Made by a program: the position numbers and the translations under genes. The notes under the pieces were generated by a model that was not told the origin of the DNA, did no database searches, and worked only from the letters and a program-made list of their open reading frames with translations. Below, piece after piece: positions 431 to 53,340 of a stretch of 64,000 bases of DNA. The stretch comes from Aphrocallistes beatrix (lineage: Eukaryota > Porifera > Hexactinellida > Sceptrulophora > Aphrocallistidae), in the NCBI GenBank assembly GCA_963281255.1, contig OY725493.1, positions 372,001 to 436,000 on the forward strand, written 5' to 3'. The first letter of the stretch is position 1; each line of letters starts with the position of its first letter.

Positions 431-644
431 TTAGATGTTGGAGATTATCCACAATTTTCTTATGATATCCTTTAGACGTTTAAGAACCCATGTGGTAAAT
501 CTACTCTAGATATATCTTTATCAGAATGTACGTATTTCAATAGGATTGGTCGAGTAAATCCGTTTTAACAGGTGGTATATTTATATAGTATTCAAACGAT
601 GCATTCATAGTAGTAAGTAAAAACTGAGTCAAAAGATTGTGAAA
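431..644. other. Spacer between TRAF-type relic and E2/U-box pseudogene
   Basis: AT-rich. Short open stretches are interrupted by stops. No SAM exon for the following pseudogene can be seen here, unlike the other family members. Confidence 0.4.
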
Positions 645-3551
645 TTCCAATTTTGAAAATAAATATTAAATTTCTAAATCAAGAAGGAATTGTCTGCAAT
701 ACTGTGTACCCTTTAGATATTGATCAATCCATGAAGTACTATGAGTTTGTACAGATAGTCTATCATGTTGTAAGTAAGAAAATAAATGGTTTTAACTTCA
801 CGAGTGTAGAACTGTACTCAGAGACAGGATATCCCCTCGCACCCACTCCTATAATCTACCTAGAACCTCTCTCTAACTGGGGACTACGAGATAATGAGTT
901 GATATATGCTTATCCTAAAGAATTATTCAACAATTACCAGTTCGTGAGTGATGTACATTGCGAGGATTTCGTAATTCCAATTAAACTTAAAAATGGAAAT
1001 TTCGTAAAAGATTTTGAATTTAAAAAAGAATTCGTCTTCTGTTTAGACCTAAAAGTACTAATATCCTTTGAAATGCATATACATGTCGATTGCAACAATT
1101 TATATTAGTTCAATTTCTCTTAAAAATGCGAGGAGATCGCACCAGATACAATAGGTTTTCAAAAGAAATCGATTGACAGACGAAATCTATCTTTCACAAT
1201 TTCTGAAACTTATATTAACAATGAATCCTTGAATGCATTCCGTACATTCTACACTTCATGCTATCTTTCTAATGGCCCTAATACATATTATTACACATTC
1301 AACGCGTATCTTCTCTTCTTAGTGAGAGAGTACGGAGAGAACAGAGATAAAGACAGACTATTGAGGAGACTGGAACTGCTTAGGAAGATTTTTTGTTCTC
1401 CTCCACTCGTCTACTATCTCTATCCCCCACATCTCTACCACACAGAATAGCCATCAATGAAGGCATCATTACAACCATTTCTCTTCTCTCCACAACTTCA
1501 GATAGACCCACCATCTCCAAATTCCCACAGCTGTGGATGCACATAGAAGAACACGCACTAACACCTGATCTACAATTGACAGAGATATACGAAACTACTT
1601 TCATTTCAAAACGGACACGAGAGAATCCGAGAGATGACGATACCCGTAGACTCTAGCGAGCATTCCCTCCCAACCAAGATACAATCGTAACTTGGAGAAC
1701 CGTCTCTTCCACACACGATGCGTTTAGCTATACTCCTCCCACTAGATTGGAAGATTTCACTGAAAGAGTTAAGCACAGATTTCCATTACAACATCCAGTA
1801 CAGCTTTACAAGAGTTTCGTAGAAGAAAGGAAATCTTACGGACTGATGCTTCCACTGATTCGTGGTCTGTCTAGTCCCTGTGTGTTCCTAGGAAGGACTG
1901 AAGGGAGGTATGGGTACTTCAACTATTTCTCCCCGGAAGATGGTAAATGTTACTGATACAATCCTCATGATATTAACATTTCAAAACGTCTCGAGATATC
2001 CAATATAAACAGTTACCTCAAGATTATAGTGATATGGGTTTGGCATTCCTTGAAAACTCAAGAATTCAAAGCGTACCTAACCCTGCACTCAGTCAACTTG
2101 ATGCTGCTAACATGTTAATAGAAAATCTCGTGGACTATCTTGTTGGATCTCAAGTATTTGCTCGGTGTCATAGTAATATCAAACAATCACGATGTTCGAA
2201 CTAAGGAAATGATGAAGCTTACTTTTGAATACAACGTGGTTTTGACCAAATTAAAAAAATATTTAGAAAAGTTTAAACCTACATATTACGAGAAATATCG
2301 GCCTACTGATGGAATAATCCAAACGTCAATTGATTATTGTATTGATTCATATTCCAGTCCCAGTAAGGAATTGAAAACAGAGATTTTTCTCTTTACTAAT
2401 GGTGAAACTAGCAAAAAGTATTATGGAGCCAAGACTAACTCATTTGAACGGAGACTCTACAACTCCTCTTGTGTGGTGAACAACGTTATTCTATCAGAAA
2501 GATTCGGACATAATTTAGAAAAACTTTGCAAGATAACTAGAGGTGTACACATCACATATAAACCAATATCAAAAAACATTTCAAAAGAAAACAATATATA
2601 CCCTCCAACTAATCCGATATTGGAATACTGCACAGTGTTACAAGACATACTGAGTGGTGTTGATGAGCGAGTGATAATTTTGGAACCTATAACTTTCTCT
2701 CAAGTCAAATCTCCCTGAAACTTATTAGTCCAGAAGAATTCCTTGAAAACTCTGAGAGAGATAAAGAGGAGTATCAGAAGACTATGATTTATCAAGGCAC
2801 AATATCTAACTGTATACACATTTTGAGGAAAGTTACTGCTTACATTAAGAGCCCTAATCCTCACTGCAAACTCTATCCTTTCAGAAATGAAATTCTAAAA
2901 TGGTTAATCTTCATGCAAGGACCAACACACTCTCCCTTTGAAGATTCTATATTTATACTGGAGTTGTATTTCGGAGAACAGTACCCACATTACCCGCCTA
3001 AACTGAGATTTCTATCATCAGTCTATCATCCTAACGTAGACAAGGCAGGACACATATGTCATCCTATTCTCATAGAAGACTACTCTCCTAGTGTCTCACT
3101 CCGTCAAATTCTAGATGCAATCCACTCTATGCTAGCCCAACCAATCATATCACATGCAGTTAGAAGCAAGGTGTTAGAAATAGCAATTTGGTACAAAGAG
3201 TTGTACGGTCAGGCAGCGAATATTCTGTGCGAAATTTTGCATTTAAAAGGCAAAACATTGTTTACCATAGAACAAAATTTCAAGATAAAATCAGACTATT
3301 CTAAGGTCTCTCATCCTCCAGCTCTAGTTTATTCTATCACAAATCAACTGTTCGACAATCCTGTCATGACTCCTGAAGGTAACACATATGAACGTCACGC
3401 TATTCTACAGCACATAGAGAATACACACACAGATCCTATCAGCAACACTCCTCTACGCTCTTCAGACCTCATTCCTAACCACGCTATGGAAGTGATGGTG
3501 AAAAATTATAAAAGTAATATGTCTTCTAAGATCTACTGGTGGGAAAAATAG
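645..3551 (+). pseudogene. Ubl-vWA-E2-U-box fusion pseudogene (subfamily A, 5'-truncated)
   Basis: It aligns along its length with the intact gene at 5374-8753. The Ubl-like N-terminus is at 653-1108, the helical region at 1229-1656, a vWA-like remnant at 2140-2718, and E2 plus U-box at 2784-3551. The E2 keeps HPN and the active-site Cys (VYHPN, then GHICHPIL). The U-box keeps LFDNPVMTPEGNTYE. The frame is broken by TAG 1106-1108, a second stop about 15 bases later, a deletion of about 16 bp near 1425, stops at 1654-1656 and 1954-1956, and a frameshift near 2720. The piece at 1747-1956 resembles the middle region of the gene at 9721-13515, a section missing from the intact subfamily A gene, so the pseudogene preserves the older, longer layout. 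No upstream SAM exon is found. The 3' part (2784-3551) is a clean 255-codon frame and could in principle still be expressed. Confidence 0.8.
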
Positions 3552-4220
3552 AGTTAAAATCGTTTGAATTACTGCATACTACCATTTGTGTACGTATTAT
3601 TAAAGTAATGTTTTAGAATTAATTTTATCACGCGTTTCCACAAAAAGTGTCAAAATATATTAGTCAATCAGAATCCAGAGATTTACTATCACGATTGACT
3701 TTGATTTAATTGATTAATGGCGACTTAACGGACATATACAAGTGAGAATCACTTTCTAGCCTAGTGTAACGATTATTCGTATGTTCAACCTTACCTCATA
3801 TGTGGCAACCAAAAATATTAGAATTTTAATTTAACAGCAGAATTTAACATAATTGATCAATTTAGAATATACCTAAGTCAATACAAATAAACAAGTTAGA
3901 ATCACTCAAATTCGATTAGTTGAAATGAAAGAAATGTCCTCAATTAACTCAATTAAGGAGGATGTATATTATACACATGCCTTACGAGTAATTTAATGAA
4001 GATATACACTATCAATCTGTCAACGGATATTTTGTTTTTGTTGATTCTTTTTCAAAACTACGCGATCAATTCTTTGTTTATTTTCGTTTACATTAGATAT
4101 GTCAAGTAAATAGTCGTAAAAATAAATTACATTTCTACAAGCACACACATAATAATCTAAGAATAATATATGCTTCTAATTTGTCAAACTGAGCCAATAT
4201 ATTACAAAAAAGCCCCTAAA
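3552..4220. other. AT-rich intergenic spacer
   Basis: No gene, RNA or clear repeat structure is recognised here. Confidence 0.4.
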
Positions 4221-4530
4221 CGTGGTTGAAGATCTCCCCTACCCTCACCCCGGGGGCATAGAACCTATCCAGGATTGTGTGACAAATTCGTCCTGAACTG
4301 TTGATGCTACAATGGTAGATAGGTGTGATGAATCTGATGTTGGGTGGTTTGGATGGATATTCGTTAGTGAACTCAATGAACAATTCAAATATTCCTCCTT
4401 CGTAAGGAGTACCTTCTGGTCCTTCCATTATAATCCTCCAGAAGTCAAAGTGTTCTTCTCCAGGGAATACCTCGATAGCTGGATGAGGATGTGCTTGGTG
4501 GTAGGAAAATTCTTGTAAGATTTGCTTAGT
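4221..4530 (-). pseudogene. Inverted E2 (UBC) domain fragment
   Basis: Read on the minus strand, about 100 codons match the E2 domain of the gene at 9721-13515. The match includes HPHPAIEVFPGEEH, the EGPEGTPYEGGIFELF core and the active-site region NSSGRICHTILDRFY. Homology starts at 4221, opposite the FNHV codons, and fades near 4530, where a repeat of the GGCGGACAC hairpin family begins. No vWA or U-box is attached. It is a displaced, inverted piece of a subfamily B E2, next to a transposon copy. Antisense transcripts crossing it would pair with the active E2 genes. Confidence 0.8.
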
Positions 4531-5010
4531 ATATATCTCTGTAACGAATTGATTGAAGAAACTGCCAGGCACAGAAAACTGATTTTGGCATGCGGGAGTC
4601 TTTTGACTATGGCTTCACTAAGTTCTGACTTCAGACGAAAATGTCGACTAATCATGGAATTATGACGTCATAGTCATCTTTGCATAATTAGAAATCTGTC
4701 TTTCGACTATAACTCAGCCATTTTAGGTGATAGAAGGCTGAAATTTTAATAAAATGTGTATATTAATATATCTCTAATATGATGCAACTATCATTTCGAA
4801 AATGATGACTCAACCCTCCGTTATCATTACTCAGCAAAAATTGAATAATTTAAAAATTTTGCGATTTTTCGCCTATAACAGTAAGACGTATTTAGGGATG
4901 TTATCTACCTTGCCATTAATCAATGTGAGGCTAGGTGTTCGAAAGACCCCTCTGGCGGACACAAAGTTTCTGACAGCCGCGCAGCGTAAGCAAGCGAAAC
5001 GCCCTTGTTA
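4530..5010 (+). mobile_element. GGCGGACAC-hairpin repeat (family A), near full copy
   Basis: Shared sequence recurs at 53708-54120 (same orientation), 20687-22254 and 42312-42645 (opposite), and as partial copies at 35355-35465, 56683-56708 and 60425-60500. Hallmarks are a region with TGACGTCAT motifs and a terminal block made of a GGCGGACAC/GTGTCCGCC hairpin, then GCGCAGCG..AAGCAAGCGAA. No coding capacity is seen, so it is a non-autonomous DNA element. Confidence 0.65.
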
Positions 5011-5373: not shown

Positions 5374-8300
5374 ATGGCGATGAGAAATATAGAAATGTCG
5401 TTGTATGAGTATCTCAAAGAGATACGGCTTGAAAAGTTTGAACAAGGTCTTAGGGAGCAAGATGTTTCTTTTGTTAGTGATTTAACGAAGATTACAAAGA
5501 CTACTTTGATTTCTGAAGTAGGGATGACTCCAATTCAAGCCAAGCGCATAGTAAGAACAATGGGAGAAATGTTTCCAGATCTTGTAAGTATTGGTAGACA
5601 CTGCTCTGTATATGTTCACTCATCTTTTGATTGTAATTGCAATTGTAATTTATAATTATAATGATATTAAAGTATGTAAAACACAAAGTTTGGCATGTTC
5701 TACTCAAACTAAACCATAGCTACGCCTATGTTAGCAATACAAGAATTCCTTTTTGCTTTTGAAACGAGTTTTTATCAGAATCCTAACTTCTTGAATACGA
5801 GAATTTTCCCGACTTAAACCTTTTCCTATCGAACAAACTAATCGACAGTTATAGTTGAATGTTAGTTTATACTTAGTTAGTTAGAGTTTTAGTGATTGCC
5901 GCCCTTGGTTTGAATATAGTTATATATTTTATCGGCTAATTTACTATTACTGGGTGCATTCATAGTGTTATAATTAACCTTGTTTTGTAGGAAATAAGAA
6001 AAGAAATAGCGCCAGTGCTCCCACTGAAATCTGCTTCACTAAAATATACTACAGTACAACCTAAGTCTGACAATAAGCCAAGTGGACAGGAAATGAAAAA
6101 TTATAAGATTCCAAAGTTAAAGATAAAATGTCAATTTCTCGACAGGCAGGGAATTTTCAACAATATAGTGTATTCTATCCATGTATTGCGATTAACTATG
6201 TACTATGAATTCGTACATCAAATCTATGAAATCTTAAGGAAAGAAAAAAGGGATATTAACTTCACGAGTGTAGAACTGTACTCAGAGACAGGATGTCCCC
6301 TCGCATCCTCTCCTAACATCTACTTTGAACCTCTCTCTAACTGGGAACTACGAGATAATGATTTGATATATGCCTATCCTAAGAAACTATTCAACAACTA
6401 TTTTTTTGAAAGTGACATTGATTGCGAGGAATTTGTAATCAACATTCAACTGAAAGATAGTAACATCAGAAAAGAATTTAAATTCAATAAAGAAAACATT
6501 TCTTATTTTGACTTGAAAATACTAATATCTTTGGACATGCACATTCCTATTGATTGCATCAGCATACACTACTTCAACCTTGCAAGCCAGTGCGAAGAGA
6601 TTGCTCTTGACAACATGGACATTCAAAAAGAATTCATTGACAAGATAAAATTATCTTTCACAATTTCTGACACTTATTCCAACAATGATATTAGAGTTCA
6701 GTCAGTTAACACTTCATGTTTTCCGTCCAGTTCCTTACCCAATTTCCACACACTTAACATAGATATTCAGGAGTTAGTGAGAGAGTACGGAGAGAACAGA
6801 GATAAAGACAGACTATTGAGGAGACTGGGACTGCTTAGGAAGATTTCCTGTTCTCCTCCACTCGTCTACTCTCTCTATCTCCTATTCACTCAATCCCCCA
6901 CATCTCTACCACACAGAATAGCCATCAATGAAGGCATCATTACAACCATTTCTCTTCTCTCCACAACTTCAGATAGACCCACCATCTCCAAATTCCCACA
7001 GCTGTGGATGCACATAGAAGAACACGCACTAACACCTGATCTACAATTGACAGAGATAAACGAAACTACTTTCATATCCAAATCAACACAAGGAAATACA
7101 AAGGATAGCAGAACTCGTAGACTCTTGAAACCACTTCTTCCTGACCCAGATACGATCATAGCTAAAGAAAACGCCCCTTCTATATATGCAATACACAATT
7201 ACTCTAAGATTATAATTATATTAGATCTTAGCAATGAGATGAGTCTGACATTCCTTGGAAATCCCACATTCCAAAAGCCAAACTCTGCACTAACTCATCG
7301 AGTTGCTGCTATTAAGGTAATAGAAACTCTCATAGAATACCTCACAAGTTCTCAATGTAAGTATTTACTCAGTGCCATAGTAATTTCCAACAATCCTAAA
7401 GTTCAAAATGGTTATTCTGAAATAATTAAACCTACCGTTGAATATGTTGAGGTTCTGAAAGGAATAAAATCCTATATCCAAGAGCTTAAACCTACCTTTT
7501 ACTTGAGAAATGAGCTCCCTGATGGTCTAATCGTAACCGTACTCAATTATTGTATTGATTCATATGCCACTTCGAGTAAGAATCTAAAAACAGAGATTTT
7601 TCTCTTCACCAATAGTGAATCTAGATTAATATATAATGGAACTAAAGAAAATCCTTTTATAAGGAAACTATGCAACTCTTCCTGTGTGCTGAATAACATT
7701 GTTCTATCAGAAAAAACGATACACTATTTAGAAGAACTGTCCAAACTAACCATTGGGGTCCATTTAACCTATAAATCAATATCAAGATATCTTTTAAGTG
7801 GAAACAACATATCTAATCTCACAATTTCAGTGTTGAAAGGGATGCTCTCAGTTAGTGGGCTGGATGCGAACTTTGGAACCTATGAATTTCTCTCTAGTAA
7901 ACTTACTGGCCAATTAATTGGCATAGAAGAATTCCTTGAAAATTGTGAAAGAGATATAAACGAATATCAAAAGGCTATAACAGCACAAAGCACAATATCT
8001 AACTGTATGCATGTTTTAGGGAGCATTACTGCTTACATTAAGAGTCCTAATCCTTTTTGTAAACTCTATCTTTTCAGAAATGAAATTCTTAAGTGGATAG
8101 TATTCATGCAAGGGCCAACAAATTCTCCCTTTGAAGATTCCCTATTAATATTGGAGTTGTATTTTGGAGAACTGTACCCACATCACCCGCCTAAACTGAG
8201 ATTTCTATCATCAGTCTATCATCCTAACGTAGATAACGCAGGACACATATGTCATCCTATTCTCATAGAAGACTACTCTCCTAATGTCTCACTCCGTCAA

Positions 8301-8753
8301 ATTCTAGATGCAATACACTCTATGCTAGCTCAACCAATCATATCACATGCTGTTAGAAGCAAGGTGTTGGAAATAGCTCAATGGAATGCTGAATTGTACA
8401 ATCAGATCGTCAATAATTTGTGTGAAACTTTGAGCTTAAAAAACAAAAAAATGTCTGCCATTGAACAAGATTTCAAAATTGAAATTCATAATGTACTTTC
8501 CAACCCTAGCAGTGTTCCCCATCCTCCAACTTTAATCTGTCCTATCACAAACAAACTTTTCGACAATCCCGTGATGACTCCTGAAGGAAATACATTTGAA
8601 CATCGAGCTATTTTAGAGCACATAGAATGTAATCATACTGATCCCATAAGTAATACACCTCTACGCTCCTCAGATCTGATACCTAACCGTGCTATAGCAG
8701 ATGCGATCTATAAGTACAAGAAAACATTGGTGACGAAGGGCTTAGTAGTGTGA
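5374..8753 (+). CDS. SAM-Ubl-vWA-like-E2-U-box fusion protein (subfamily A, intact)
   Basis: Two coding exons, 5374-5583 and 5991-8753, join at phase 0 (donor CTT|GTAAGTA, acceptor TTTTGTAG|GAA) into about 990 residues. Residues 1-70 form a SAM domain (GMTPIQAKRIVR). Residues about 110-270 hold two ubiquitin-like segments. A helical region follows. Residues about 475-680 are a decayed vWA, with DLSNE where the metal site DxSxS would be. Residues 744-873 are an E2 with HPN at 814-816 and catalytic Cys at 824 (codon 8250-8252). Residues 913-983 are a U-box (CPITNKLFDNPVMTPEGNT). E2s carry ubiquitin as a thioester and U-boxes recruit E2s, so the chain could be self-sufficient for ubiquitin transfer. 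The segment between helical region and vWA is shorter than in the 9721 gene. AATAAA lies at 8876-8881. The fusion is seen directly; activity is inferred. Confidence 0.88.
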
Positions 8754-9125
8754 ATATTAGAAGAGAACTGTTTGCACTACTTTTGTATTGACTGTATTTG
8801 TTCTGTATATTTTGTAATCCAATATCGTAGATATGTTAATTATGTCTGGAAATATACCGGTTAACTCCTGGAAGAAATAAAAAAATGTCCGTCAACACAC
8901 TGATAGTGCAGCTCCATTAAGTGACTCGTATAGCATTTGCATAATATACAGCTTTAATTGCGTTTTAAACAATTTTCTCTATGTCAGTCAACCAGATTTC
9001 AAGTTTAGAGAGTCATCGTGATTCATTTATATCCATTGAGTCAGATAATCCCTATAAATCAATAAATTTAAAGCCAACTGTAATGTCAAATCCCTGGATT
9101 TTGATTGTCTAATACATTTTTACAC
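8754..9125. other. 3' flank of the 5374-8753 gene
   Basis: It contains a polyadenylation-type AATAAA at 8876-8881. Nothing else is recognised. Confidence 0.4.
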
Positions 9126-9330
9126 CCTTTGTGAAAAGCTGCGAAAGTTTTTCAAAATTTGAGCCTAGGATTAAATCTCTACCATATAAGTAATATATGG
9201 TCTAAATTTGGCGCAATTTGATCCAATCGAATTTCCAGGAGCGAGCAGACAGAAGGACTTAAGTAAGGACTTCGACGCCGATCATGACATAACATCTCCT
9301 ATTCTAGGTACTGCACTAAAAATAATCGAT
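9126..9330 (+). repeat. Dispersed repeat (family B) copy 1
   Basis: The block CTACCATATAAG, then CAATTTGATCCAATCGAATT, then GGAGCGAG and GATCATGACATAA matches 59625-59815 in the same orientation and 35035-35225 inverted. The open frame across it is probably incidental. Confidence 0.55.
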
Positions 9331-9562
9331 CCCAGCTTGTATCTAGCAGCTTATGAGGTTATATATTCTGGCTTAAACATGCGTATATACATGGTCTTCC
9401 AAAATATGAATTTTAGAATCCATAGGCGCTCCATTCCAAACTTTTTGGACCTTATCCATTCGTAAGTGAGGTTCTTCCTGAATCAATATTAATCTCAGTC
9501 ATTTGGATCAGTAAATTGATCTGTATTATGATTTATTCTATCAAACAAATAGAATGTTACTA

Positions 9563-9655
9563 CTGCAATATCCCGCTGAAATGGTATGATATGATATCTC
9601 CACATGAAGTCAAAGAGATCATATGTCGGCATAGGCTCTCCCTGCCTATAGTATG
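9563..9655 (+). promoter_or_regulatory. Conserved upstream block, copy 2
   Basis: CAATATCCCG and GATCATATGTCGGCATAGGC match the block in front of the 5374 gene, at a similar distance (about 65-155 bases) from the ATG at 9721. Confidence 0.5.
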
Positions 9656-9720
9656 TGCATAACTAAATACATTATGTATATACTTTAGAAAGAGTGAGGA
9701 TATTTCTATCTTATTTCTAC

Positions 9721-12700
9721 ATGGCAAATAAGGAAATATCGTTAACTGAATTTCTCAGACACAAAGATGTACGCCTTGGCGAGTACGAAGAAACGTTAAT
9801 TGAGCAGGGTGTTGAAAAAATAGACGATTTGAAGGACGTTGATAAAGAGATACTCACAAGAGACATTAAGATGAAGCCAATTCAGGCCAATCGTTTGTTA
9901 AGGAGCGTCTCAGAGCATTTTAGTTTAGTAAGTTATGATATATACTTGTAGTATTACGTATGTCTTTAGTGATAAAAGGGAGAATCTAAGGACACAGCCC
10001 GTTGATACTGGCAACATTTGCTTTATAATATTCCCAAATACTTTCTAGTATAGAACGTATACTTATCGAGCGAATGATAAAATAAATGGGGCAACTGCTG
10101 GCCGCTAGTGACATATGATCGCCTGGCATGCTTTTTTGGTTTCCGGGTCATAGCGGCCATAAACAGTGCCAATATTAAGAATTGTTAAATTCGATTATGC
10201 CACAATTTTGATTTATACTTAGTATCACATGTTTTCTCATTCCAGTTCTAGGTTAAGTATCTACGAATCTATAGCTAGTGTTGACTTCGTTCTAGTAACA
10301 ATACACATCATAGCTGTCATCTTGATTAATTCCTCAAATTAATCAGGAGGGGCATGTCTGTGTTAAAACCTACTATATACGTTATTAATATTTAATAGAA
10401 GCCATCTCGTTCAATACAAGGACAAGATCACAATGGACTTAATGATGAAGTTCATAAAATGCAAACTAGAAAATTTCAACTTGAAATTCACTACCAGCTG
10501 TTTACAAACCAAAATCCAGAAAAGAAGAGAGTAGGGCCTTTTAACGGTGATCGTGTACTATACTGTGACCTAATTAACATTATATGCAACGAAGAACGAG
10601 ATGAGATACGAGAAGACATGACGGTAGAACTGTACACCTGTGAAGGGTACCCATTAGCCACTAGACCTATCTCCTACATAAGCAAACTGTCCGACTGGTG
10701 TCTTGAGGAGTATCCTGACACTCCTCTACTCTATGCTGTTCCTAGACTTAAATGCTATACTGACAAGTGTACACAGTACATGACAGCAGCTCCTCTCTGT
10801 GATGGAATTGATCATATCTTCATAAGGAATGCTGAATGCGATTTCAAAAGAACGATACGAACTAATTGTAATGAAGCTACGTATTTCCAGTTAATGAAGA
10901 CAATACAAGACATGACAGGAATCCCAGGCCATCTTATCCAATTGTATCAAGCTGACAAACAGGCCCATTCAGATGAAGATAGCTTAACGCTAGATAAACT
11001 GAGTATTGGTAATCAATCTGCATTAGATATGAAACTAAATGACCATTTCTGGACTTTAGGGAAAGACAAGAATTTCAGTTTGCAAGAATGTAAACCAACT
11101 TGGCATCAAGAACAAAGCAATTTTGGGACTTCGTTCTTTTTCAGCTGTCTCTACTCGCTAGCTGATTGGATGGCAGAACCTGACCAAAGATCCTCTGGAG
11201 TATTCTACAAGACATTGGGACACATTCGCAGCATAACAGGATGTCCTCCATTGATCCACGCACTCAACATAATGTTCAGAAATGAGACGCTATCCCTCCC
11301 ACACAGAGTTGCCATTCAGGAATGTCTAGTCATGCTTTTTAAAACGATCGAACCTAAAAACCGAAAACTACACATCCCAGGATTCGAAATTATAAATACA
11401 AAGAAAGTAACTGAGTTTTCGAACTATTTTTGGGTTTATCTAATTCACTACTCGAATAAGAGTCACTTGCAGACAGAACAATACTCTACTCTCAACCTAA
11501 CTTGTAGTGTGACGTTTAAACGCATGACTGATCCTGTATTAGTGATGGATACAAATGGAGTTGAGCACATAGTTGATCGCAATACACTTTATAGAGAGGA
11601 TAGAGACCTAGTCAAGTATCTGTATAATTATAAACGAATGATACATTCATTTATTGGAGATGAAGTGATTATTTGGAATTGTATCCATGCCCCAACATGT
11701 GGAGTGGATCTAACAGATAAGTGGGAGGGACTGACTGAATTATGTTCAAGTTTTCCAGCACTTTCCGTTCAAACGCCACTAAATATCAATGCTCTTTGTC
11801 GTAAACCATCCATGGTTCCTCTCGCAAACGGAAATATTGGTGTCTATACTAGTACATCTGTATCTAAAATTGGCGACAGACCCTTCATTTACTTTGAAGT
11901 TTCCACTGGGAAATATAATAATTTTGATGTTCAAGAATTGGATAGAGCAGTAAAGTCGAACCCACCTCCTATCTGGGAAATAATAGACCATTCTAAGCAT
12001 GCTCTTCAGACCATGACTCGTGATCCTGAAGAGATTATAATGGTCATTCTAGACACCAGTGCATCAATGACATCATTATATCTGGACTGTAAAACAAAGG
12101 TGGATTCAGTTTTGGAGGCATTTTTAGCCTTTTGCGATCGTACTGAAGCTTATCAATTTAAGAATATGATTGGGTTGATATTGTTTGCACAGGATTGCTT
12201 ATTGCAATATCCATTTTCTGAAGATCTCCAAGGATTTACTGATCAGTTTGGAACTTACCCAATTGGAACCAGTACTGCTATCTACGACGCGATAAAATTT
12301 GCAGTCGATCAGTTTGAAAATTTTACAACTCAATATCCAAATTGCAGAGATGTGCATCGAAGGATTTTATGCTTAACAGATGGTGCTGACAACAATTCCA
12401 GCATTACACCTAAAAGGGCGACTAGGTTGCTTGTAGACAATGGAATAATAATGGACTGTGTATTACTGTGTCCAAGTATTACAGTTGATACACATGCTAT
12501 TGCAAAGGCTAGTGGTGGGTACTCTTTTAAGCCGTTTAGCTCGCGAGAGATGTTGAACATATTTGAACAAGAAACAATGTTATCAATGAAATGGAGAAAG
12601 GATTGCACTGCCGTCTTTCCTCCAGGAAAAAGTATCGACCTCAGTTCCCAAGCTACTCGGCCCTTAGATACAGAACCAACTCATGTGTTACCTGATAAGC

Positions 12701-13515
12701 TAAACATAAAAGTCCAAACCATTCAGAAGTGTCTTTCGCGTGCGCTGATTCAGAAACAACTAGCTTCTCGTCCTAACACAAATCTAACTAAGAGAATCAT
12801 ACAAGAACTTTCCTACTACCAAGCACATCCTCATCCAGCTTTCGAGGTGTTCCCTGGAGAAGAACACATTGACTTCTGGAGGATTATAATGGAAGGACCA
12901 GAAGGTACTCCTTACGAAGGAGGAATATTTGAATTGTTCATTGAGTTTATTAACGAATATCCAGCTAAACCACCTAACATCCGATTCATCACACCTATCT
13001 ACCATTGTAACATCAACAGTTCAGGACGAATTTGTCACACAATCCTGGATAGGTTCTATGCCCCCGGGGTGAGGGTAGGGGATATCTTCAACCACGTGTA
13101 TGGACTCCTGAGTAGTCCAGAAGAACAAGATCCACTAGATAGCGTGAAGGCTAATTTGCTACGTTTTAATAAAGAAAAGTATTTTCGGGAAGCAAAATAC
13201 TTCACTGATTATCATGCTAAAGTTCCCATAACAAGTGTTCGTATTAAACTTCTTGGTGGAAAGCAGAATGTTAAAGTGAACTATCCAGAACATCTCGTAT
13301 GTCCTTTGACATTACAATTATTTGAAGATCCAGTTGCTACCTTATCTGGAGACACTTACGAGAGAGAAGCGATAGTAGAGCATCTCAACAGTGGAAAGAA
13401 CTATGATCCGTTCACTTTCCGTGAAATACACATTAACGAATTGCGTCCGAATAAATTAATCCAGAGATCAGTTTTCAACTATAAGCAACAAGTTGCCATG
13501 GCAGCTAAATTATAA
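9721..13515 (+). CDS. SAM-Ubl2-vWA-E2-U-box fusion protein (subfamily B, intact)
   Basis: Exons 9721-9927 and 10399-13515 join at phase 0 (donor TTTA|GTAAGT, acceptor TTTAATAG|AAG), giving about 1107 residues. Residues 1-69 are SAM. About 95-185 is a first Ubl-like segment. About 207-282 is a clear ubiquitin fold (TIQDMTGIPGHLIQLYQ parallels ubiquitin's IQDKEGIPPDQQRLIF). About 434-484 is a cryptic U-box-like stretch (LTCSVTFKRMTDPV). About 614-789 is a vWA with intact MIDAS elements (DTSAS 621-625, GTSTAIYDA, LTDGADNN). About 859-1009 is an E2 with HCN instead of HPN, keeping the active-site Cys 948 (codon 13033-13035). About 1032-1104 is a U-box (CPLTLQLFEDPVATLSGDTYE). MIDAS metal could bind a ligand while E2 and U-box act on ubiquitin; this is inferred from domain families. 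Confidence 0.9.
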
Positions 13516-14272: not shown

Positions 14273-14404
14273 GCATCCCTTGTAACATCCTTGAATTAAT
14301 CCTAGATATTGAACGGATCGTATATCAATTAGGCTTTATTTAGTTATCATAGGAGCATCAATAATTTTATTTAATCATTGAATTTGGAAATCAACCAAAT
14401 AGCT

Positions 14405-17400
14405 ATGAGCAATTCAGATGAAACATTGCTTGAATTTCTCGAGGTAAACAGGCTAGATAAATTCAGAGATAAATTGGTCTATCAAGGAGTGGAAAGCTTT
14501 GATGATTTGGCGGATGTTGATTTGGATATTCTAGAATCATGTGTTGGGATGACTCTGGTTGAAGCTAACCGCATGATAAGGAGAAGAGATGAATGCTTAT
14601 CAAAGATGGTAAGTTATAATACAGTCGAAACCGTATTTTTCTTACTCTTTATTGCGTAAGAATTTCAAAATTCGTATTACTTTCCATCGTTTTTTCTTAC
14701 CCTTATTTTGTCAATCTTATTTACAACAACATTAAATTCGTCCTAGTAAAATTATTTTTTTATAATGTTTTTGACAGTTCTCCAGTGATCCTCTATTAGT
14801 GCTTAATTATACTACTAGAAACACTGTTAGCACATATATTTCAGGAACAAAGTCAGTAAATTTTGAGACCATGACATCTTGAACCTTTATTTGATAATTT
14901 ATAACCTTGGAAATACTTATTATTTCCTTTAATAGGTCACTAAGTATATTCCTGATAAAACATTGCTTGAATTACTCGAAGAGAGCCGACTGGACACATT
15001 TAAGGATGAGCTAAAGAATCAAGGAGTAGAATGTTTTGATGATTTGATAGATGTCAATTCTGATATTCTGACATCAGAAATTGGGATGACTCTCATTCAA
15101 GCTAATCGCATGATAAGGAAAAGAGATGAATGCTTATCAAATCTGGTGAGTTATGATAGCTAGAGTTGGGATCTTTATCGTTCAGTGATCTGCAAGACAT
15201 AGCTAGGTCACTGTCACTTGTTCTATTATGTTTCAGCTAAGGCTTAACTGCCAAACTGCTTGTATATAGTTGGCAATGTTTCTTTGCATAATGTCCTGTT
15301 TTATTAATGAAATGTAATTAGGTAGATATTGAGTATTATTTGTACGCAAATCTTGCGCCAGAAAAGAGAAGATTGCGTCTATTTACGCCAGATCCAATCC
15401 TGTACTGCGACCTAGTTAACATTATATGCAACGAAGAACGAAATGAGTTAGAAGACATGACGGTAGAACTGTACACCTGTGAAGGGTACCCATTAGCCAC
15501 TAGACCTATCTCCTACATAAGCAAACTGTCCGACTGGTGTCTTGAGGAGTATCCTGACACTCCTCTACTCTATGCTGTTCCTAGACTTAAATGCTATACT
15601 GACAAGTGTACACAGTACATGACGGCAGCTCCTCTCTGTGATGGAACTGATTCTATCATCATTCGAAATGCTGAATGCGATTTCAAAAGAACGATACGAA
15701 CTAATTGTAATGAAGCTACGTATTTCCAGTTAATGAAGACAATACAAGACATGACAGGGATTCCAGGCCATCTTATCCAATTGTATCAAGCCGACAAACA
15801 GGCCCATTCAGATGAAGATAGCTTAACGCTAGATAAACTGAGTATTGGTAATCAATCTGCATTAGATGTGAAACTAAATGACCATTTCTGGACTTTAGGG
15901 AAAGACAAGAATTTCAGTTTGCAAGAATGTAAACCAACTTGGCATCAAGAACAAAGCAATTTTGGAATTTCGTTCTTTTTCAGCTGTCTCTACTCGATAG
16001 CTGATTGGATGGCAGAACCTCAGCAAATATCTTCAGGTAAACCATCTCAAATCTTGGGACACATACGCAGCAAAACCCAATGTCCACCACTGATACACGC
16101 ACTCAATCTCTTGTTCAGAAATTCTACTGTAACCCTTCCGCATAGAGTTGCTATTCAAGAGTGCTTGGTTCTTCTCTTCAAAACCTTAATCAAGCACATT
16201 AAATTAGATTTTAAAACAAGTGCAAATACAGTAACTAAAAACACAAACTATTTTTGGGTATATCTGATTGAGAATTCAAATCCTGAACACATGAAAACAG
16301 AGCGATACACAACTCTCAGCTTAACCTGTAGTGAAACATTCAAACGCATGACTGATCCAGTACTAGTCAATGACGTAAATGGAGTAGAACATATAGTTGA
16401 TCGTAGAGCTTTGAATGCAAGAATAGCGTTTGACGGAAACTCAGTCCTAAATCTCTTGAACTACAGACGCATGATAAAGTCTTTTATTGGGGATCAAGCG
16501 ATTGTGTGGAATCCTACTACCAATATCATTGAGGTCAGAGAACTGGAGTGTACTGGTATACCCAAAAAATGCCAGAATTATCCAATACTTTGTGTCCAGG
16601 CACCTCTAAACGTTACTTTCAGTCATTTCCGTATACCATCCATGATCCCTACTTTAAATAGGAATGTCGGAGTTTATTTAGGAAACTCAAACGATTCAAA
16701 AGAGCGTTATGTTTATTATGATGTCCAAACTGGACGTTCTGTCCTTTTCAATGCTCAAGATCTAAATATAAATGTAAGAAATTATTCTTCTTGTTTCCAG
16801 AATCTAGTAAAGCTGACAAATGAAGACCAAGTCAGTCCTAATAACCCCGAAGAGATTATAATGGTGATTCTTGATACAAGCAAATCGATGAGATCTCCTT
16901 ATCTGAACGGCAAAAGCAAATTTAACTCAGTGGCCGAAGCGTACAAAGCTTTCCTCGATCGTACAAATGCCTACGATCTTAAACACATAATTGGATTAGC
17001 TTTGTTTGCAAAAGAATGCTGGTTATATCATGAACTTTCTCAAAATTTTCAAAACTTCACCAATCTGTCCAGTATTTTATCACGAGGAAAGCATACTGCC
17101 ATTTACAGAGCAATAGAATTTGCAGTCCAACAGTTGAACATTTTCAAAACTCAAAATCCAGCTTACCAAGAACTACCTTGCAGAATAATATGCCTGAGTG
17201 ATGGAGGAGGAAAAAACTCAACCAGTCACGCCACATCAGTTGCTAGGCTGCTCATAGAGAATAACATTAAGATGGATAGTGTGCTGTTATCTAGAAAAGT
17301 ATTAGACACACATTTGATAGCTAAAGCTAGTGGAGGGTTCTCATTCATGCCTACAAGTACAGAAGAACTGCTAAGCATATTTGAACATGAAACAATGCTA

Positions 17401-18342
17401 TCAATGAAGGTTAGAGAGCATCGTACGGCCGCTTTTTCCCCTGGACAAAGTATCAACCTCAACTCACAAGCTATTCTGCCTGTTGATACTGCACCAAGAC
17501 ATATAGCACATGGAAAGCTAAACAATACAGTACAAACTGTAGAAAAGTGTCTTACACGCGCTTTCATTCAGAGACAGCTGTCTACTCACACCAACACTGA
17601 TCTAACGAAAAGGATCTTACAAGAACTTTCCTACTACCAAACACATCCTCATCCAGCTATCGAGGTGTTCCCTGGAGAAGAACACATTGACTTCTGGAGG
17701 ATTATAATGGAAGGGCCAGAAGATACTCCTTACGAAGGAGGAATATTTGAGCTGTTCATTGAGTTCATTAACGAATATCCATCCAAACCACCTAACATCC
17801 GATTCATCACACCTATCTACCATTGTAACATCAACAGTTCAGGATGAATCTATCACTCAGTGCTAGATAGGTTCTACACTCCAGTATTGAGAGTAGGAGA
17901 TATACTGATCCAGGTTTACGAACTCCTCTGTAACCCACAGTCTGATGATTATCTGGACAGTGTGAAGGCTAACCTTTTTTGCTCAAATAAAAACGAATAT
18001 TTGCAAAAAGCTAAACGCCACACAAATTCTTACGCAAAGAGAAATAGAGAGACTATTCTCAATTCTCTTATCGGGAGTAAGCACAGTATACCTACAGACT
18101 ATCCTGAGCACTTGGTGTGTCCACTAACTATGGAACTGTTCCAAGACCCAGTCACTACTCTATTCGGAAACATTTATGAGAGCAAAGCGATTGAAGATCA
18201 TCTCAGAAGTGGAAAGAATTACGATCCTCTAACGTTCCGTGAATTAGACGAAGATGAGTTGCGTCCGAATAATGCGATTAAGAAACTTGCAAGAGATTGC
18301 ATGTATCGTCAAGACAACAGAAATAGTTCTAACATGTTGTGA
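14405..18342 (+). pseudogene. SAM-SAM-Ubl-vWA-E2-U-box gene with stop at the E2 active site (subfamily B)
   Basis: Exons 14405-14608, 14936-15145 and 15322-18342 join in phase 0 (donors GTAAGT and GTGAG; acceptors AATAG and AATTAG). The first two exons each encode a SAM domain, so this member has tandem SAMs. Ubl segments, a U-box-like middle and a vWA with DTSKS and LSDGG follow. The frame is open for about 979 residues, then hits TGA at 17845-17847, where the sister gene has CGA (Arg). The next codon but one, 17851-17853, is TAT (Tyr) where the sister has the catalytic Cys. The frame then stays open for 164 codons through a U-box (CPLTMELFQDPVTTLFGN) to 18342. The product is therefore either truncated mid-E2 or, by readthrough, an E2-dead protein. 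Pseudogene is the likeliest reading. A truncated SAM-Ubl-vWA product may still act, for example as a competitor. Confidence 0.85.
17845..17853 (+). other. Premature stop plus active-site Cys to Tyr change
   Basis: TGA-ATC-TAT replaces the sister gene's CGA-ATT-TGT. The first change is a CpG-type C to T; the other removes the thioester cysteine. Downstream codons stay in frame. Confidence 0.85.
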
Positions 18343-22173: not shown

Positions 22174-25100
22174 CTAAGCGGAAATTTGATCATTGGCTGG
22201 CGGACACAAAGTGTCCGCCAGCCGCGCAGCGCAAGCAAGCGAAACCCGCTTGTAATTAATAAACTTGAACAAACCTTTCTCAATTTCATTGGTAAATAGA
22301 ATCTCGACAGAGTACTTCTCTGCTGTCTGTATGAGGTGTTTTAGTGGTTCGGAGTCTGGACCAGAGAGTTCAAGTTTGAAGAGTGTTAGTTTTCTTACTT
22401 TTGGAAGTGTCGGTATAAGACAGCTGAGAGTGTGATACGAAGCAGAACTGAGTCTGCAATTTATTACCTGTAACCACCTTATAGCAGAGTGATGAACTAG
22501 ACAGCCACATAGCACCATCATGCCTGAGTCTTGTAGAGGGATATCGACGAGTAGCAAGAAAACGAGTGACTGAAGAGCTGAGATAGTGCTGTACCGGAAA
22601 CTGACGTCATACGAACTGAAATTAGAACAAGACAACATTAACGTCATAAGATTAGAACATGATGCAATGCAACTTAGTAAACTACTCCAGGTATGGATCC
22701 CTGCTCTATCTAAATTAGAAAAATATATCTCTCTCAATGAGTTGGAATTTTTTGCAATTATTGGAGTGAGTTCGTGTATGCGAGAATCGGTGGGATGTGG
22801 TTCTTTAGTAGAGGATATCATCAGGTGTGTAAGAGAGCTGAGGTGTTGTAGGTAACGTAGGACTGCGTATGTATCTCCTCTTCTTCCCCAATTCAACTCT
22901 TTCAGCGAGGAGATGGGAAATAAGGTATCAAGTGGAACTGAAAGAGAACCTTCACAGTCTACAATGTAGAATCCATTAATCGGATGTTTTGCTACTAATT
23001 GGAGGAGATTCTTAATAACACGGTTCTGACTATCAGAGTCATCCTTTAAGGGCATATAATTGAAATTCTCTAACAAATGGAATTGATTGATGAGCGGGTT
23101 TAGTGTTTCGTAATGAATATCGGATTGTTGAATACTCAAACTCCCAGCAAACTGATTGGGTGATGAAAATATAGGAGTGGAAGTAGTCAGGTTACAACAA
23201 AAAATATGGAAACTAATCCTGGTGTTAGGTGGCAGAGTGGCAGAGGAGAGAATGCTAGTGTAGGGATATATGGCATCGAAATCTTTATCAACAAACAACA
23301 GCGCTAAGTAATGGATAGAACAGGAGGAGATCTGATTTAAGAAAGATTGGAACTGCGCTGAGGTAACATAGTCAGATCGGATATGAATAATTTGATACTC
23401 ACGAATATGACTCAGTGACTGAAGGAAACAATGCCACTCATTCGGAGATATTGTAGAATGGAAATATAAATAGAGAGGATAGGAAAACTCTCTTTTGAAA
23501 TAAGCAAAGTGCTCATGAATGGAGTGTGAGTTCATTTCGCTAATCACTGTGGAGAGAAGAAGGTAGGATTGAGTGAATTCCTTCCAATCGGACAAATTAG
23601 TAAGGGCTGCGCCGTAGTACAGCTGAGAAAACATAGATGCATCACGGAGTGACAGGGGTTTCGGGAGAGTATGGCGACAGAGAATGGGAGTCATGCGTCC
23701 TGCGTCCTGTCTTAAGATCCCACCCATGAAGCGAATTACCATTTTATACAAGGACAAGTACTGAGCAGAAGATGTTAGGTATCGAAGTATCAAACATTGA
23801 TTTGTCCACGAATTGTTACAAATGGAAACTGCCGCCATGTACTCTTGAATGGTCAGGTGTTGGAAGGTCCAGACCTTGACACGCACGCCAAACCTCACTA
23901 CTTTCATGTGGACTTGCATTAAACCGAGACGCTCACTGTCATACACCTTATCGTCAATCGTGAGGGAGATGTTCTTTTCTGAGGTGAGTTCTCGTTCGAA
24001 TATTCCCTGATTAGCCTCGAGTCCAATGGTATTAATGCAGTCTCGAATGGCCGGATGGAATTTAGACATTTCTACGATTTTACTCTGTTCCTTCAGTTCC
24101 ATTCGTGACAACTGCCGTCTGACGATATAAACGATCAATTGTGTGTAGAGGTGTGACAGTGTCTGAGTGAGGATGGATTCAGTCGCGTTGAAGAGAGCGC
24201 TGAATAAACTGGCGTTCACGGGCACCAAGGACAGTTGTTTGATTTCATCATGACGGTTAAACATTTCGTGAACATCATTTAGTTTGGAAATGGTCTCGAT
24301 GCGCTTTTCGAAGTACAAGTCTCGGTTTCTGGGAGAAAATCCTAACACTTGGAAGTTTGAATCGATATGGAATTGGGTGCCATACGTGTATTTGAAATCG
24401 TACCACGCGCTAGGTCGACTCGTTAAGAGGATGGTGCTACGTGTTAGGAACTGTCGCTCTAGCAATTTGCAGAGTAAGGTGGTTTCGAATGGGACATTCC
24501 GAGTGAACTCGTCAGCCCCGTCCATTATGATGAAGAGTCCCTCCCCGTCCGATCTGACCAAATACTCGGAGAGTGCTTTGCTCCATTTGGCGCCAGTCGA
24601 CATGCTGAGTTGGAGCCAGCTAACAATGAATGGAGAGTTCACGACCTGCTTCTTTTCGTGTCTCTCCTCCTCTAACAGATGCCACTCCTTACTCCTGCAC
24701 GGAATTGAAACAGTGTATTGGAAGTTATTCATAGTATGGGTACCGTACATGTAGCCGAAGTACTTACATAAGAAAGTTTTCCCACTGCCGGGGTGACCAA
24801 TCAAACACCACAGTTTATTATCATTTGAATCGCACTCAATCACAATTTCTTCAAAGTCTACGACTTCTACGGTTTCCAGTTCGACTTGTTGGTGGATATT
24901 GCGTAGGAATTCGATCTCATTGAGGCCACTCTCCTCAAACGCTGTCTCCTTTGCAGGTTTAATTTGGATTACGGTAAGCGGTGTAAACACAGATTCTATC
25001 GGGACGGCTGCTTCATCTAGCACTACGCTAACGTCCTTATTCTGAGTTTTGAGGAACTTCCTCAAACCTATTTGCCACTCTTCGTGATTTTCCTTTATTT

Positions 25101-25689
25101 CCTGTTCTATTTCGTTATAAAGTTCTCTACGAAATTGATCGTTGGTCATATCTTTAAAGGTTGATGTAAAATGACGGACTTTTATAGCCAAATCGCTACG
25201 CAAGATTATGTTTAGATACTCACTGAGATTTTCCATATCCTTGGTTATAATACCGTTCTCTATGCAAAGTTGGAACATTTGATTATTGCTCTTATTTTCT
25301 TCTATGCTGACTTCAGATGTGCTTGCGGTTAGGATTACCCATTGCTCATTGGTCAGTTCTGTTTCCAACAATTTCTTAAAAGATTTACTGGAATAAGGCT
25401 CGTCTGTTATAATGGACTGCTTGAAACTCGGAAAACTCAGCCATTCTAGTTTCCTAGCGGTGTGTAATAGGGTTTGGTTATCTATCATTCGTAATGCTCG
25501 GTCGAACGTATTCGGATTAAACTTTTCCCAGTCCCTTAGCGCATACAAAAACTTGATAGGTTTCGTACCAATAGCTTCGCTCATTCCAGCTGGAAATTCA
25601 AGTGCGTTTTTCAATTTCATCACAATGTCAGGTGTCATCAGTTTCTCGAGTTCAATTAACACCTTCACTTGATGTTTTCTTTCTTCCAT
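22174..25689 (-). CDS. NLR-type protein 1: DED-like x2, NACHT, LRR
   Basis: One long exon encodes up to 1171 residues. Residues 1-85 and about 103-178 are DED-like death folds (FLYALRDWEKFNP; ENGIITKDMENLSEYL). NACHT follows, with P-loop GHPGSGKT at 298-305, Walker B FIIMDGADEF at 386-395 and sensor-like LLTSRPSAW at 421-429. A winged-helix-like region precedes about six leucine-rich repeats at the C-terminus. NLRs are cytosolic sensors that oligomerise on nucleotide exchange and recruit death-fold partners; tandem DEDs suggest a caspase-8- or FADD-like partner. A splice acceptor TTCTTCTAG sits six bases before the ATG. The last 25 or so codons of the open frame read into the inserted element at 20687-22254. 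A splice donor AAAG|GTTTGT at 22275/22274, shared with NLR 2, may bypass this. Confidence 0.88.
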   Translation of the reverse strand: MEERKHQVKVLIELEKLMTPDIVMKLKNALEFPAGMSEAIGTKPIKFLYALRDWEKFNPNTFDRALRMIDNQTLLHTARKLEWLSFPSFKQSIITDEPYSSKSFKKLLETELTNEQWVILTASTSEVSIEENKSNNQMFQLCIENGIITKDMENLSEYLNIILRSDLAIKVRHFTSTFKDMTNDQFRRELYNEIEQEIKENHEEWQIGLRKFLKTQNKDVSVVLDEAAVPIESVFTPLTVIQIKPAKETAFEESGLNEIEFLRNIHQQVELETVEVVDFEEIVIECDSNDNKLWCLIGHPGSGKTFLCKYFGYMYGTHTMNNFQYTVSIPCRSKEWHLLEEERHEKKQVVNSPFIVSWLQLSMSTGAKWSKALSEYLVRSDGEGLFIIMDGADEFTRNVPFETTLLCKLLERQFLTRSTILLTSRPSAWYDFKYTYGTQFHIDSNFQVLGFSPRNRDLYFEKRIETISKLNDVHEMFNRHDEIKQLSLVPVNASLFSALFNATESILTQTLSHLYTQLIVYIVRRQLSRMELKEQSKIVEMSKFHPAIRDCINTIGLEANQGIFERELTSEKNISLTIDDKVYDSERLGLMQVHMKVVRFGVRVKVWTFQHLTIQEYMAAVSICNNSWTNQCLILRYLTSSAQYLSLYKMVIRFMGGILRQDAGRMTPILCRHTLPKPLSLRDASMFSQLYYGAALTNLSDWKEFTQSYLLLSTVISEMNSHSIHEHFAYFKREFSYPLYLYFHSTISPNEWHCFLQSLSHIREYQIIHIRSDYVTSAQFQSFLNQISSCSIHYLALLFVDKDFDAIYPYTSILSSATLPPNTRISFHIFCCNLTTSTPIFSSPNQFAGSLSIQQSDIHYETLNPLINQFHLLENFNYMPLKDDSDSQNRVIKNLLQLVAKHPINGFYIVDCEGSLSVPLDTLFPISSLKELNWGRRGDTYAVLRYLQHLSSLTHLMISSTKEPHPTDSRIHELTPIIAKNSNSLREIYFSNLDRAGIHTWSSLLSCIASCSNLMTLMLSCSNFSSYDVSFRYSTISALQSLVFLLLVDIPLQDSGMMVLCGCLVHHSAIRWLQVINCRLSSASYHTLSCLIPTLPKVRKLTLFKLELSGPDSEPLKHLIQTAEKYSVEILFTNEIEKGLFKFINYKRVSLACAARLADTLCPPANDQISA

Positions 25690-33979: not shown

Positions 33980-33984
33980 TTCGA

Positions 33985-53160: not shown

Positions 53161-53340
53161 TTCAATCTAAGAAATACTATTCATAAACCTCGTAATATCA
53201 TTAACAAGCTCGATTCAATTCTCGATTCAATTCGGTTGTATCTACTCAGTACACTGGATACACTACTATACAAGAATCCCTCAGAACAGTGGAGATATGC
53301 TATAGACTGTAGCAGTAGAAATTAGACAATGGATTTGGTG

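What the first reader, a model, noticed from the sequence alone, without database searches (positions are those of the whole stretch)
5374..13515. Tandem genes fusing SAM, ubiquitin-like, vWA, E2 and U-box domains on one chain
Two intact genes (5374-8753, 9721-13515) encode an E2 with its active-site Cys directly followed by a U-box E3, behind a vWA, ubiquitin-like segments and a SAM exon. I know of large E2/E3 hybrid proteins such as BIRC6 and UBE2O, but not of this domain order. It would place ligand sensing or oligomerisation (SAM, vWA), a ubiquitin-like module and both transfer steps in a single protein.
Basis: partly seen in the sequence, partly recalled or inferred. Interest (0 to 1): 0.9.

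Follow-up and report, generated by a model that had tools for sequence, protein, structure and literature searches.

The report
E2–U-box fusion ligases in glass sponges
A glass sponge carries a tandem array of genes whose single protein combines a ubiquitin-carrying enzyme (E2) and a ubiquitin ligase (U-box) with sensing and clustering domains, a build also found in uncharacterised proteins of other sponges and of fish and apparently not yet described.

Summary
Gene 1 (5374-5583 + 5991-8753, 990 aa) is of a diverged sister subfamily: E2 and U-box are clear and a SAM is supported, but its vWA is degenerate and the internal U-box missing. The host is most likely a glass sponge (closest named homologs: Oopsacas minuta). 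Two paralogs elsewhere in the genome carry the whole architecture in one uninterrupted ORF; one passes Pfam cut-offs for all five named domains. The vWA-E2-U-box core, with SAM, recurs in Oopsacas, Amphimedon and teleosts, all uncharacterised. Here it forms a ~170 kb cluster, mostly under purifying selection, with gene-conversion-like homogenisation, some copies lacking the E2 Cys, and NACHT genes nearby. Most likely it is a self-contained E2/E3 machine whose E2~Ub is activated by its own or a SAM-neighbour's U-box; this and an immune role are inference. Kind: new variant of E2/E3 hybrids.

The parts
5374..5583 (+). gene 1 exon 1: SAM domain, 70 codons, donor GTAAGT at 5584
   Evidence: SAM profile built without genes 1 and 2 hits at 1.2e-10; Pfam SAM_TNK below cut-off
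5991..8753 (+). gene 1 exon 2, 920 aa (type B): Ubl1, helical MID, degenerate vWA, E2, U-box
   Evidence: hhalign of type B alignment A4 against A2: probability 100, E 8.9e-74 over 914 columns
7971..8435 (+). gene 1 E2 domain; active-site Cys codon 8250-8252 (YHPNVDNAGHICH)
   Evidence: UQ_con E 1.3e-27; family profile built without type B, 2.4e-28; motif
8499..8729 (+). gene 1 U-box
   Evidence: Pfam U-box E 2.2e-14; family profile built without type B, 1.1e-23
9721..9927 (+). gene 2 exon 1: SAM domain, 69 codons, donor GTAAGT at 9928
   Evidence: SAM profile built without genes 1 and 2 hits at 2e-12; Pfam SAM_2 below cut-off
10399..13515 (+). gene 2 exon 2, 1038 aa (type A); acceptor before 10399 is my choice among several in-frame ones
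   Evidence: AlphaFold2 model pLDDT 87.6, pTM 0.78
10462..10713 (+). gene 2 Ubl1 (ubiquitin-like)
   Evidence: position (profile includes gene 2); N-terminal model pLDDT 91.4, pTM 0.91; Ubl1+Ubl2 match linear di-ubiquitin and ISG15 with differing domain placement
10771..11028 (+). gene 2 Ubl2 (ubiquitin fold)
11041..11466 (+). gene 2 helical middle domain (MID)
11467..11694 (+). gene 2 probable degenerate internal U-box (U-box1)
   Evidence: homolog P0053: Pfam U-box reports two stretches and a sub-threshold zf-Nse match falls here; U-box2 profile touches this region of the C11 ORF at E 0.01 and the U-box1 profile hits another U-box gene, C1:8470393, at 3.5e-3
12019..12558 (+). gene 2 vWA domain, intact MIDAS DTSAS
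12754..13218 (+). gene 2 E2 domain; active-site Cys codon 13033-13035 (YHCNINSSGRICH)
13261..13494 (+). gene 2 C-terminal U-box (U-box2)
   Evidence: Pfam U-box E 5.2e-16; PDB U-boxes incl. CHIP and plant U-box proteins
14399..18342 (+). gene 3 (type A), broken: two SAM exons 14399-14635 and 14942-15157, main ORF 15322-17847 ended by TGA inside the E2, then 17848-18342 with Tyr at the Cys position
617..3551 (+). upstream type B copy spread over several frames (probable pseudogene); last ORF 2667-3551 carries E2 + U-box
4216..4614 (-). solitary antisense E2 fragment, 94.9% identical to gene 2 over 311 nt

Best explanation
These genes encode a family of animal E2/E3 hybrid ubiquitin ligases. Shown by sequence and predicted fold: one chain carries SAM, tandem ubiquitin-like domains, a helical domain, a probable vestigial U-box, a vWA with a conserved metal site, a ubiquitin-type E2 with its core catalytic residues, and a canonical U-box. 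Inferred mechanism: E1 charges the E2 Cys; a U-box2, its own or that of a neighbour in a SAM-mediated oligomer, locks E2~Ub for discharge onto a substrate held by the vWA/Ubl/MID part, so the chain needs no free E2 or E3. Further inference: the tandem array serves a fast-turning-over, probably innate-immune, role; type A (gene 2) is the full enzyme and type B (gene 1) a diverged, possibly regulatory, sister.
For: Pfam hits over cut-off. The C1 ORF equals P0048 over 1142 aa; P0048 passes SAM_TNK, ubiquitin, VWA_2, UQ_con and U-box cut-offs and is one intronless frame. Confident models with fold matches. In A2 (57 rows: gene 2 plus 56 of the 74 proteins found; 18 left out): Cys 53, HxN Asn 55, MIDAS Asp 56 and both Ser 57, D117-equivalent Asp 53. 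The Phe that UBE2D uses for RING/U-box contact (F62, recalled) is Phe in 1 of 57, and backside Ser22 is Ser in 1 of 57, which would fit an E2 that relies on a tethered E3. Purifying selection over the main exon: dN/dS median 0.31 (0.23-0.43, 15 pairs of 6 type A ORFs) and 0.45 (0.41-0.53, 10 pairs of 5 type B ORFs). Immune hints: tandem cluster, conversion-like homogenisation, three NACHT ORFs in the window, a RING and weak B-box match prefixed in halibut P0064.
Against: No biochemistry and no transcripts of this genome. I could not measure E2-U-box contact in the model. Two of 10 open type A ORFs have lost the Cys. Type B has His at the D117 position in 10 of 10 rows and degenerate MIDAS. NACHT genes are common in this genome (94 matches scored of 176 candidates), so adjacency is weak evidence for immunity. 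No domain has a median dN/dS above 1, though single pairs in Ubl1, U-box1 and U-box2 exceed 1; no site test for positive selection was run. The C1 gene is one locus and 80% identical to Oopsacas P0053, which looks housekeeping. Loss of F62 is not decisive: UBE2A has Asn there (alignment).
Confidence: 0.6

Rival explanations
1. Same enzyme, but a general protein-quality or signalling ligase (CHIP-like job), not an immune one; the tandem array reflects dosage or an unstable region.
For: Purifying selection over the main exon; the C1 gene has an 80% identical Oopsacas counterpart, and the C1 and C11 genes group with single proteins from other, mostly unnamed, sources; the solved U-boxes matched include CHIP.
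Against: Large lineage-specific tandem expansion with broken and Cys-less copies and a RING/weak B-box prefix in halibut are less usual for housekeeping ligases.
Confidence: 0.28
2. Many copies, including type B gene 1, are pseudo-enzymes that act as scaffolds or inhibitors through SAM hetero-oligomerisation with active copies.
For: Cys lost in 2 of 10 open type A ORFs and D117-equivalent His in 10 of 10 type B rows; MIDAS degenerate in type B.
Against: Cys is kept in 10 of 10 type B rows, and type B E2 and U-box2 have median dN/dS 0.41 (10 pairs) and 0.15 (6 pairs).
Confidence: 0.2
3. The E2 carries a ubiquitin-like modifier other than ubiquitin, or works with free E3s while the U-box has another job.
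For: Backside and RING-contact residues differ from UBE2D; the tandem Ubls resemble linear di-ubiquitin, ISG15 and OASL.
Against: The best sequence and fold matches listed are ubiquitin E2s (UBE2A, UBE2D, UBE2E, UBE2N).
Confidence: 0.1
4. Annotation illusion: SAM exon and main exon belong to different transcripts.
For: The acceptor of gene 2 has several in-frame alternatives; some cluster copies have no SAM exon detected close upstream.
Against: C1 and C11 paralogs have SAM to U-box in one ORF; both introns are phase 0 right after the SAM; P0028, Trinity-named, has a SAM-like N-terminus in my alignment.
Confidence: 0.03

Closest known systems
BIRC6 (BRUCE/Apollon) and UBE2O, E2/E3 hybrids (domain content recalled; 'hybrid' wording seen in abstract starts listed)
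   Same: E2 and E3 activities on one chain with accessory domains
   Different: No BIR domain here (Pfam); this family has a U-box directly after the E2, plus SAM, tandem Ubl and vWA
WDSUB1 (WD40-SAM-U-box), PMC3087547, passages read
   Same: Animal U-box ligase with a SAM domain; SAM + U-box sequences without WD40 are noted there, two of them from sponges
   Different: No WD40 here; described there with WD40, SAM and U box only
Mb_UBOXa, vWA + U-box protein of Monosiga and some protists, PMC3087547, passages read
   Same: vWA together with a U-box; called ancient there
   Different: No E2 or SAM mentioned in the passages read; said there to be absent from animals. Its sequence was not compared, so kinship is open
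Uncharacterised proteins: Oopsacas minuta LOD99_14351, LOD99_14356, LOD99_726; Amphimedon A0A1X7US96; Hippoglossus LOC117778419; Scomber LOC121913673; Arctogadus glacialis
   Same: vWA, E2 and U-box called, homologous to the query over most of their length; these are family members
   Different: SAM passes Pfam in LOD99_14356, LOD99_726 and halibut, is below cut-off in Amphimedon and Scomber and is seen only by alignment in the rest; halibut adds an N-terminal RING and a weak B-box match; no function is given
UbcH5B-RING3 of MIB1 fusion, PDB 8v0d
   Same: Top Foldseek match of the full model (E 2.1e-14): E2 with a tethered RING domain
   Different: A fusion construct; the relative placement of the two domains does not superpose (rmsd 16.5)

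Membership tests
E2 ubiquitin-conjugating enzymes (UBC fold) | UBC fold over curated cut-off, HxN and active-site Cys | tested here: met
E2 ubiquitin-conjugating enzymes (UBC fold) | E1-dependent thioester with ubiquitin | not testable with these tools
   needs protein
U-box E3 ligases | U-box over curated cut-off | tested here: met
   59 and 53.8 bits vs 21.4
SAM-domain proteins | SAM model over curated cut-off | tested here: inconclusive
   genes 1 and 2 below cut-off; of 8 homologs scanned, P0048, P0053, P0042 and P0064 pass SAM_TNK, P0049 and P0065 are below it, P0063 and P0070 have no SAM match; SAM profile without genes 1 and 2 hits both
vWA proteins with MIDAS | vWA over cut-off with DxSxS motif | tested here: met
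   gene 2 only: VWA_2 36.8 bits, motif residues conserved; gene 1 not called and MIDAS degenerate
Ubiquitin-like domain proteins | ubiquitin (beta-grasp) fold | tested here: met
E2/E3 hybrids such as BIRC6 and UBE2O | E2 and E3 function on one chain | not testable with these tools
   both domains present; activity untested
BIRC6 | BIR domain | tested here: not met
   no BIR model listed at E <= 0.1 in genes 1 or 2
WDSUB1 | WD40 repeats | tested here: not met
   no WD40 model listed at E <= 0.1 in genes 1 or 2
TRIM proteins | RING + B-box | tested here: not met
   not listed in genes 1 and 2; halibut P0064 has RING over cut-off and a B-box match below cut-off
Mb_UBOXa (vWA + U-box of Monosiga and protists) | sequence homology outside the U-box | not tested
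   its sequence was not fetched; known only from passages of PMC3087547

The most novel reading that the evidence does not exclude
An ancient animal family of self-sufficient ubiquitin-transfer sensors: ligand binding by vWA/Ubl/MID and SAM-driven oligomerisation switch on an E2 that has become insulated from free E3s and is activated only by the U-box of its own oligomer. In glass sponges it forms a gene-converted tandem array near a contig end alongside NACHT genes as an innate-immune arm; in a teleost it gained a RING/B-box front end; no human member is known to me (recalled, not searched).
Probability: 0.27. Interest if true: 0.85.

Novelty: new variant of a known kind. Interest (0 to 1): 0.62.

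Why it matters
Natural proteins that put a complete E2 and a U-box E3 on one chain would let the cis/trans question of ubiquitin transfer be tested in one molecule, something otherwise done with made fusions such as PDB 8v0d. The family, seen in glass sponges, a demosponge and teleosts but apparently unnamed, suggests that animal ubiquitin enzymology has a hybrid branch outside the catalogue of characterised proteins. Its tandem expansion in a genome rich in NACHT genes makes an immune role in an early-branching animal testable.

Tried and rejected
Second protein search with the 9-row alignment A1 returned only three Amphimedon proteins; the third, from P0048, gave the fish and wider relatives (25 proteins; only the 7991 candidates sharing most words were scored). 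Virus collection scan: 29 pattern matches, none a relative. Prokaryote genome scan: 18 pattern matches, 1 relative, vWA part only, 23% identity, in a Leptolinea MAG; so no prokaryotic version of the whole architecture was seen at that sensitivity. Synonymous constraint as the cause of low E2 divergence was rejected because identity between paralog groups is low at the same sites. The whole-model fold comparison tests mainly vWA and E2 and the N-terminal one mainly Ubl2; MID, U-box1 and the segment after it have no firm fold match here, which does not show a new fold. A Pfam scan of alignment A2 was too large and not answered; instead 8 homologs were scanned. Promoter and tRNA scans gave nothing useful. 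BIRC6, WDSUB1 and TRIM membership were considered and rejected for genes 1 and 2. The ten answered library searches listed no paper that I could see describing this architecture; they show only the top 8-15 rows each, only openly licensed PMC papers are held, and I read passages of five (PMC3087547, PMC10280926, PMC10282587, PMC4327156, PMC2964712); the others were seen as listings with abstract starts.
Full report
What is there. The window is 64 kb of a 100.5 Mb genome in 28 contigs (C7:372001-436000). The closest named homologs in the first search (50 proteins) are from the glass sponge Oopsacas minuta, so the host is most likely a hexactinellid; no tool names the species. Gene 1 splices as 5374-5583 + 5991-8753 (990 aa) and gene 2 as 9721-9927 + 10399-13515 (1107 aa), each with a GTAAGT donor and a phase-0 intron right after the SAM exon. 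The acceptor of gene 2 is my choice among several that keep the frame.

One chain. Two paralogs outside the cluster, on C11 (1162 aa) and C1 (1144 aa), hold SAM through U-box2 in one uninterrupted reading frame. The C1 protein equals database protein P0048 over 1142 aa, and P0048 passes the Pfam cut-offs for SAM_TNK, ubiquitin, VWA_2, UQ_con and U-box. P0028, Trinity-named and so presumably from a transcriptome, is 1150 aa with vWA, E2 and U-box called; its SAM-like start is seen only in my alignment.

Two subfamilies. Own profiles over C7:212001-436000 and 12 other U-box loci show type A (gene 2) and type B (gene 1). These profiles contain gene 2 but no type B sequence, except the SAM profile, which held both genes. 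In the cluster, type A has six open main ORFs plus broken copies at about 276 kb (no E2) and gene 3. Ten cluster loci of type B carry an E2; several are fragmentary, and two (311 kb, 343 kb) show no U-box. Outside, type A is on C2 (twice), C11 and C1, and type B on C14. Profile-profile alignment joins type B to type A over 914 columns (probability 100, E 8.9e-74), vWA included, but a single vWA profile does not detect it in gene 1 (E 33) and its MIDAS is degenerate. Gene 1 also lacks the U-box1/INT stretch.

Catalytic residues. A2 has 57 rows: gene 2 and 56 of the 74 proteins found; 18 were left out by me as short, redundant or distant. Cys 53, HxN Asn 55, MIDAS Asp 56, both MIDAS Ser 57; D117-equivalent Asp 53. 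The four rows without Cys are P0002, P0007, P0041 and P0071; the first two are 99.9% and 100% identical to two C7 ORFs of this genome. F62-equivalent is Phe in 1 of 57 and S22-equivalent is Ser in 1 of 57. In this genome Cys is kept in 8 of 10 type A rows and 10 of 10 type B rows (one further type B E2, at 297.9 kb, was not in that alignment; it reads GLICH); D117-equivalent is Asp in 10 of 10 type A and His in 10 of 10 type B. Numbering is recalled from UBE2D and rests on matches of equal length.

Distribution. Homologs with vWA, E2 and U-box called are in Oopsacas (P0023, P0042, P0053), Amphimedon (P0049, P0051) and teleosts (P0064 Hippoglossus, P0065 Scomber, P0066 and P0069 Arctogadus). 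Of 8 homologs scanned, SAM passes in 4 (P0048, P0053, P0042, P0064), is below cut-off in 2 (P0049, P0065) and unmatched in 2 (P0063, P0070); Pfam ubiquitin passes in 3 (P0048, P0053, P0070); U-box is missing in P0070. Ectocarpus P0073 has a precomputed E2 but no U-box. In a quick tree of 52 rows the C1 gene groups with Oopsacas P0053 and unnamed proteins, the C11 gene with unnamed proteins, and the C7 type A copies form their own clade; long branches make the deep order unsure.

Selection and conversion. Pairwise dN/dS over the main exon: type A median 0.31 (0.23-0.43; 15 pairs of 6), type B 0.45 (0.41-0.53; 10 pairs of 5), one C2 pair 0.27. Single pairs exceed 1 in Ubl1 (up to 1.57) and U-box2 (2.39) of type A and U-box1 (1.92) of type B, all short segments; dS above 1 in some domains is near saturation. 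Synonymous divergence is mosaic: fourfold-site identity within C7 type A is 0.99 in Ubl1 (61-120) and 0.94 in the E2 core (841-900), against 0.60-0.71 in vWA (541-720) and 0.63 in U-box2 (961-1020). The E2 core is 0.97 within type B and 1.00 in the C2 pair, yet 0.24 between C7 type A and C2 and 0.38 between types A and B. The islands are not the same everywhere: in type B Ubl1 is only 0.83 while residues 241-480 reach 0.89-0.96, and in the C2 pair residues 181-300 are also 1.00. This points to gene conversion, not synonymous constraint. Pairs are not independent and no formal conversion test was run.

Neighbourhood. Three NACHT ORFs lie at 22174-25689, 30527-33985 and 49756-53166, minus strand; leucine-rich and death-like ends are my reading of two of them. 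NACHT matches are many in the genome: 94 scored of 176 candidates, and the window's own three are not in that list, so it is a lower bound. Closeness is therefore weak evidence.

Mechanism. Shown: the parts, their order, conserved catalytic and metal-site residues, constraint. Inferred: E1 charging of the E2; activation by the chain's own or a SAM-neighbour's U-box; substrate binding by vWA/Ubl/MID; immune use. The altered RING-contact and backside positions fit an E2 that depends on a tethered E3, but UBE2A has Asn at the F62 place, so this is a hint only.

Comparison and novelty. It would work like an E2/E3 hybrid, a kind known from BIRC6 and UBE2O (recalled; abstract starts), but is not BIRC6: no BIR is called and a U-box follows the E2. 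PMC3087547 (passages) describes SAM + U-box sequences in sponges and an ancient vWA + U-box gene said to be absent from animals; neither passage mentions an E2 in them. Ten answered searches (listed under Tried and rejected) showed no description of this architecture, within open PMC papers only. The Oopsacas and Aphrocallistes genome papers hold no occurrence of 'ubiquitin' or 'U-box' in their main text. I rate it a new variant of a known kind.

Noticed in passing
window 22174-25689, 30527-33985, 49756-53166 (minus strand): Three large single-exon NACHT ORFs (1171, 1152, 1136 aa) downstream of the E2/U-box genes; the genome has at least 94 further NACHT matches.
   Followed up: partly
G000:C1 about 11.67-11.95 Mb; L038, L039, L040: A second, separate tandem expansion of E2 domains (UBE2J/Ubc6-like by my reading): 29 of the 99 UQ_con matches, up to two E2 domains in one ORF, with RBR-like ORFs by my reading and NACHT matches in the same region.
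   Followed up: partly
gene 2 exon 2 residues 61-120 and 841-900, and same segments of paralogs: Islands of near-identical synonymous sites between otherwise diverged paralogs: the E2 core in three paralog groups, Ubl1 in type A and the C2 pair, MID to INT in type B; conversion-like.
   Followed up: partly
window 4216-4614 (minus strand): Solitary antisense E2 fragment overlapping the same E2 core, 94.9% identical to gene 2 over 311 nt.
   Followed up: partly
G000:C7:281169-284345 and C7:352173-355271: Open type A ORFs with the E2 Cys replaced by Tyr and Gly.
   Followed up: partly
window 14399-14635 and 14942-15157: Two SAM exons in a row before broken gene 3; could be alternative or tandem SAM exons.
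   Followed up: no
P0064 (Hippoglossus LOC117778419): Halibut member carries a C3HC4 RING and a weak B-box match before the SAM, so RING, U-box and E2 on one chain.
   Followed up: no
P0042, P0053 (Oopsacas): UniRef names are non-specific protein-tyrosine kinase, probably a misannotation through the SAM_TNK match.
   Followed up: no
window 37535-38716 (minus strand): Retroelement integrase core ORF.
   Followed up: no
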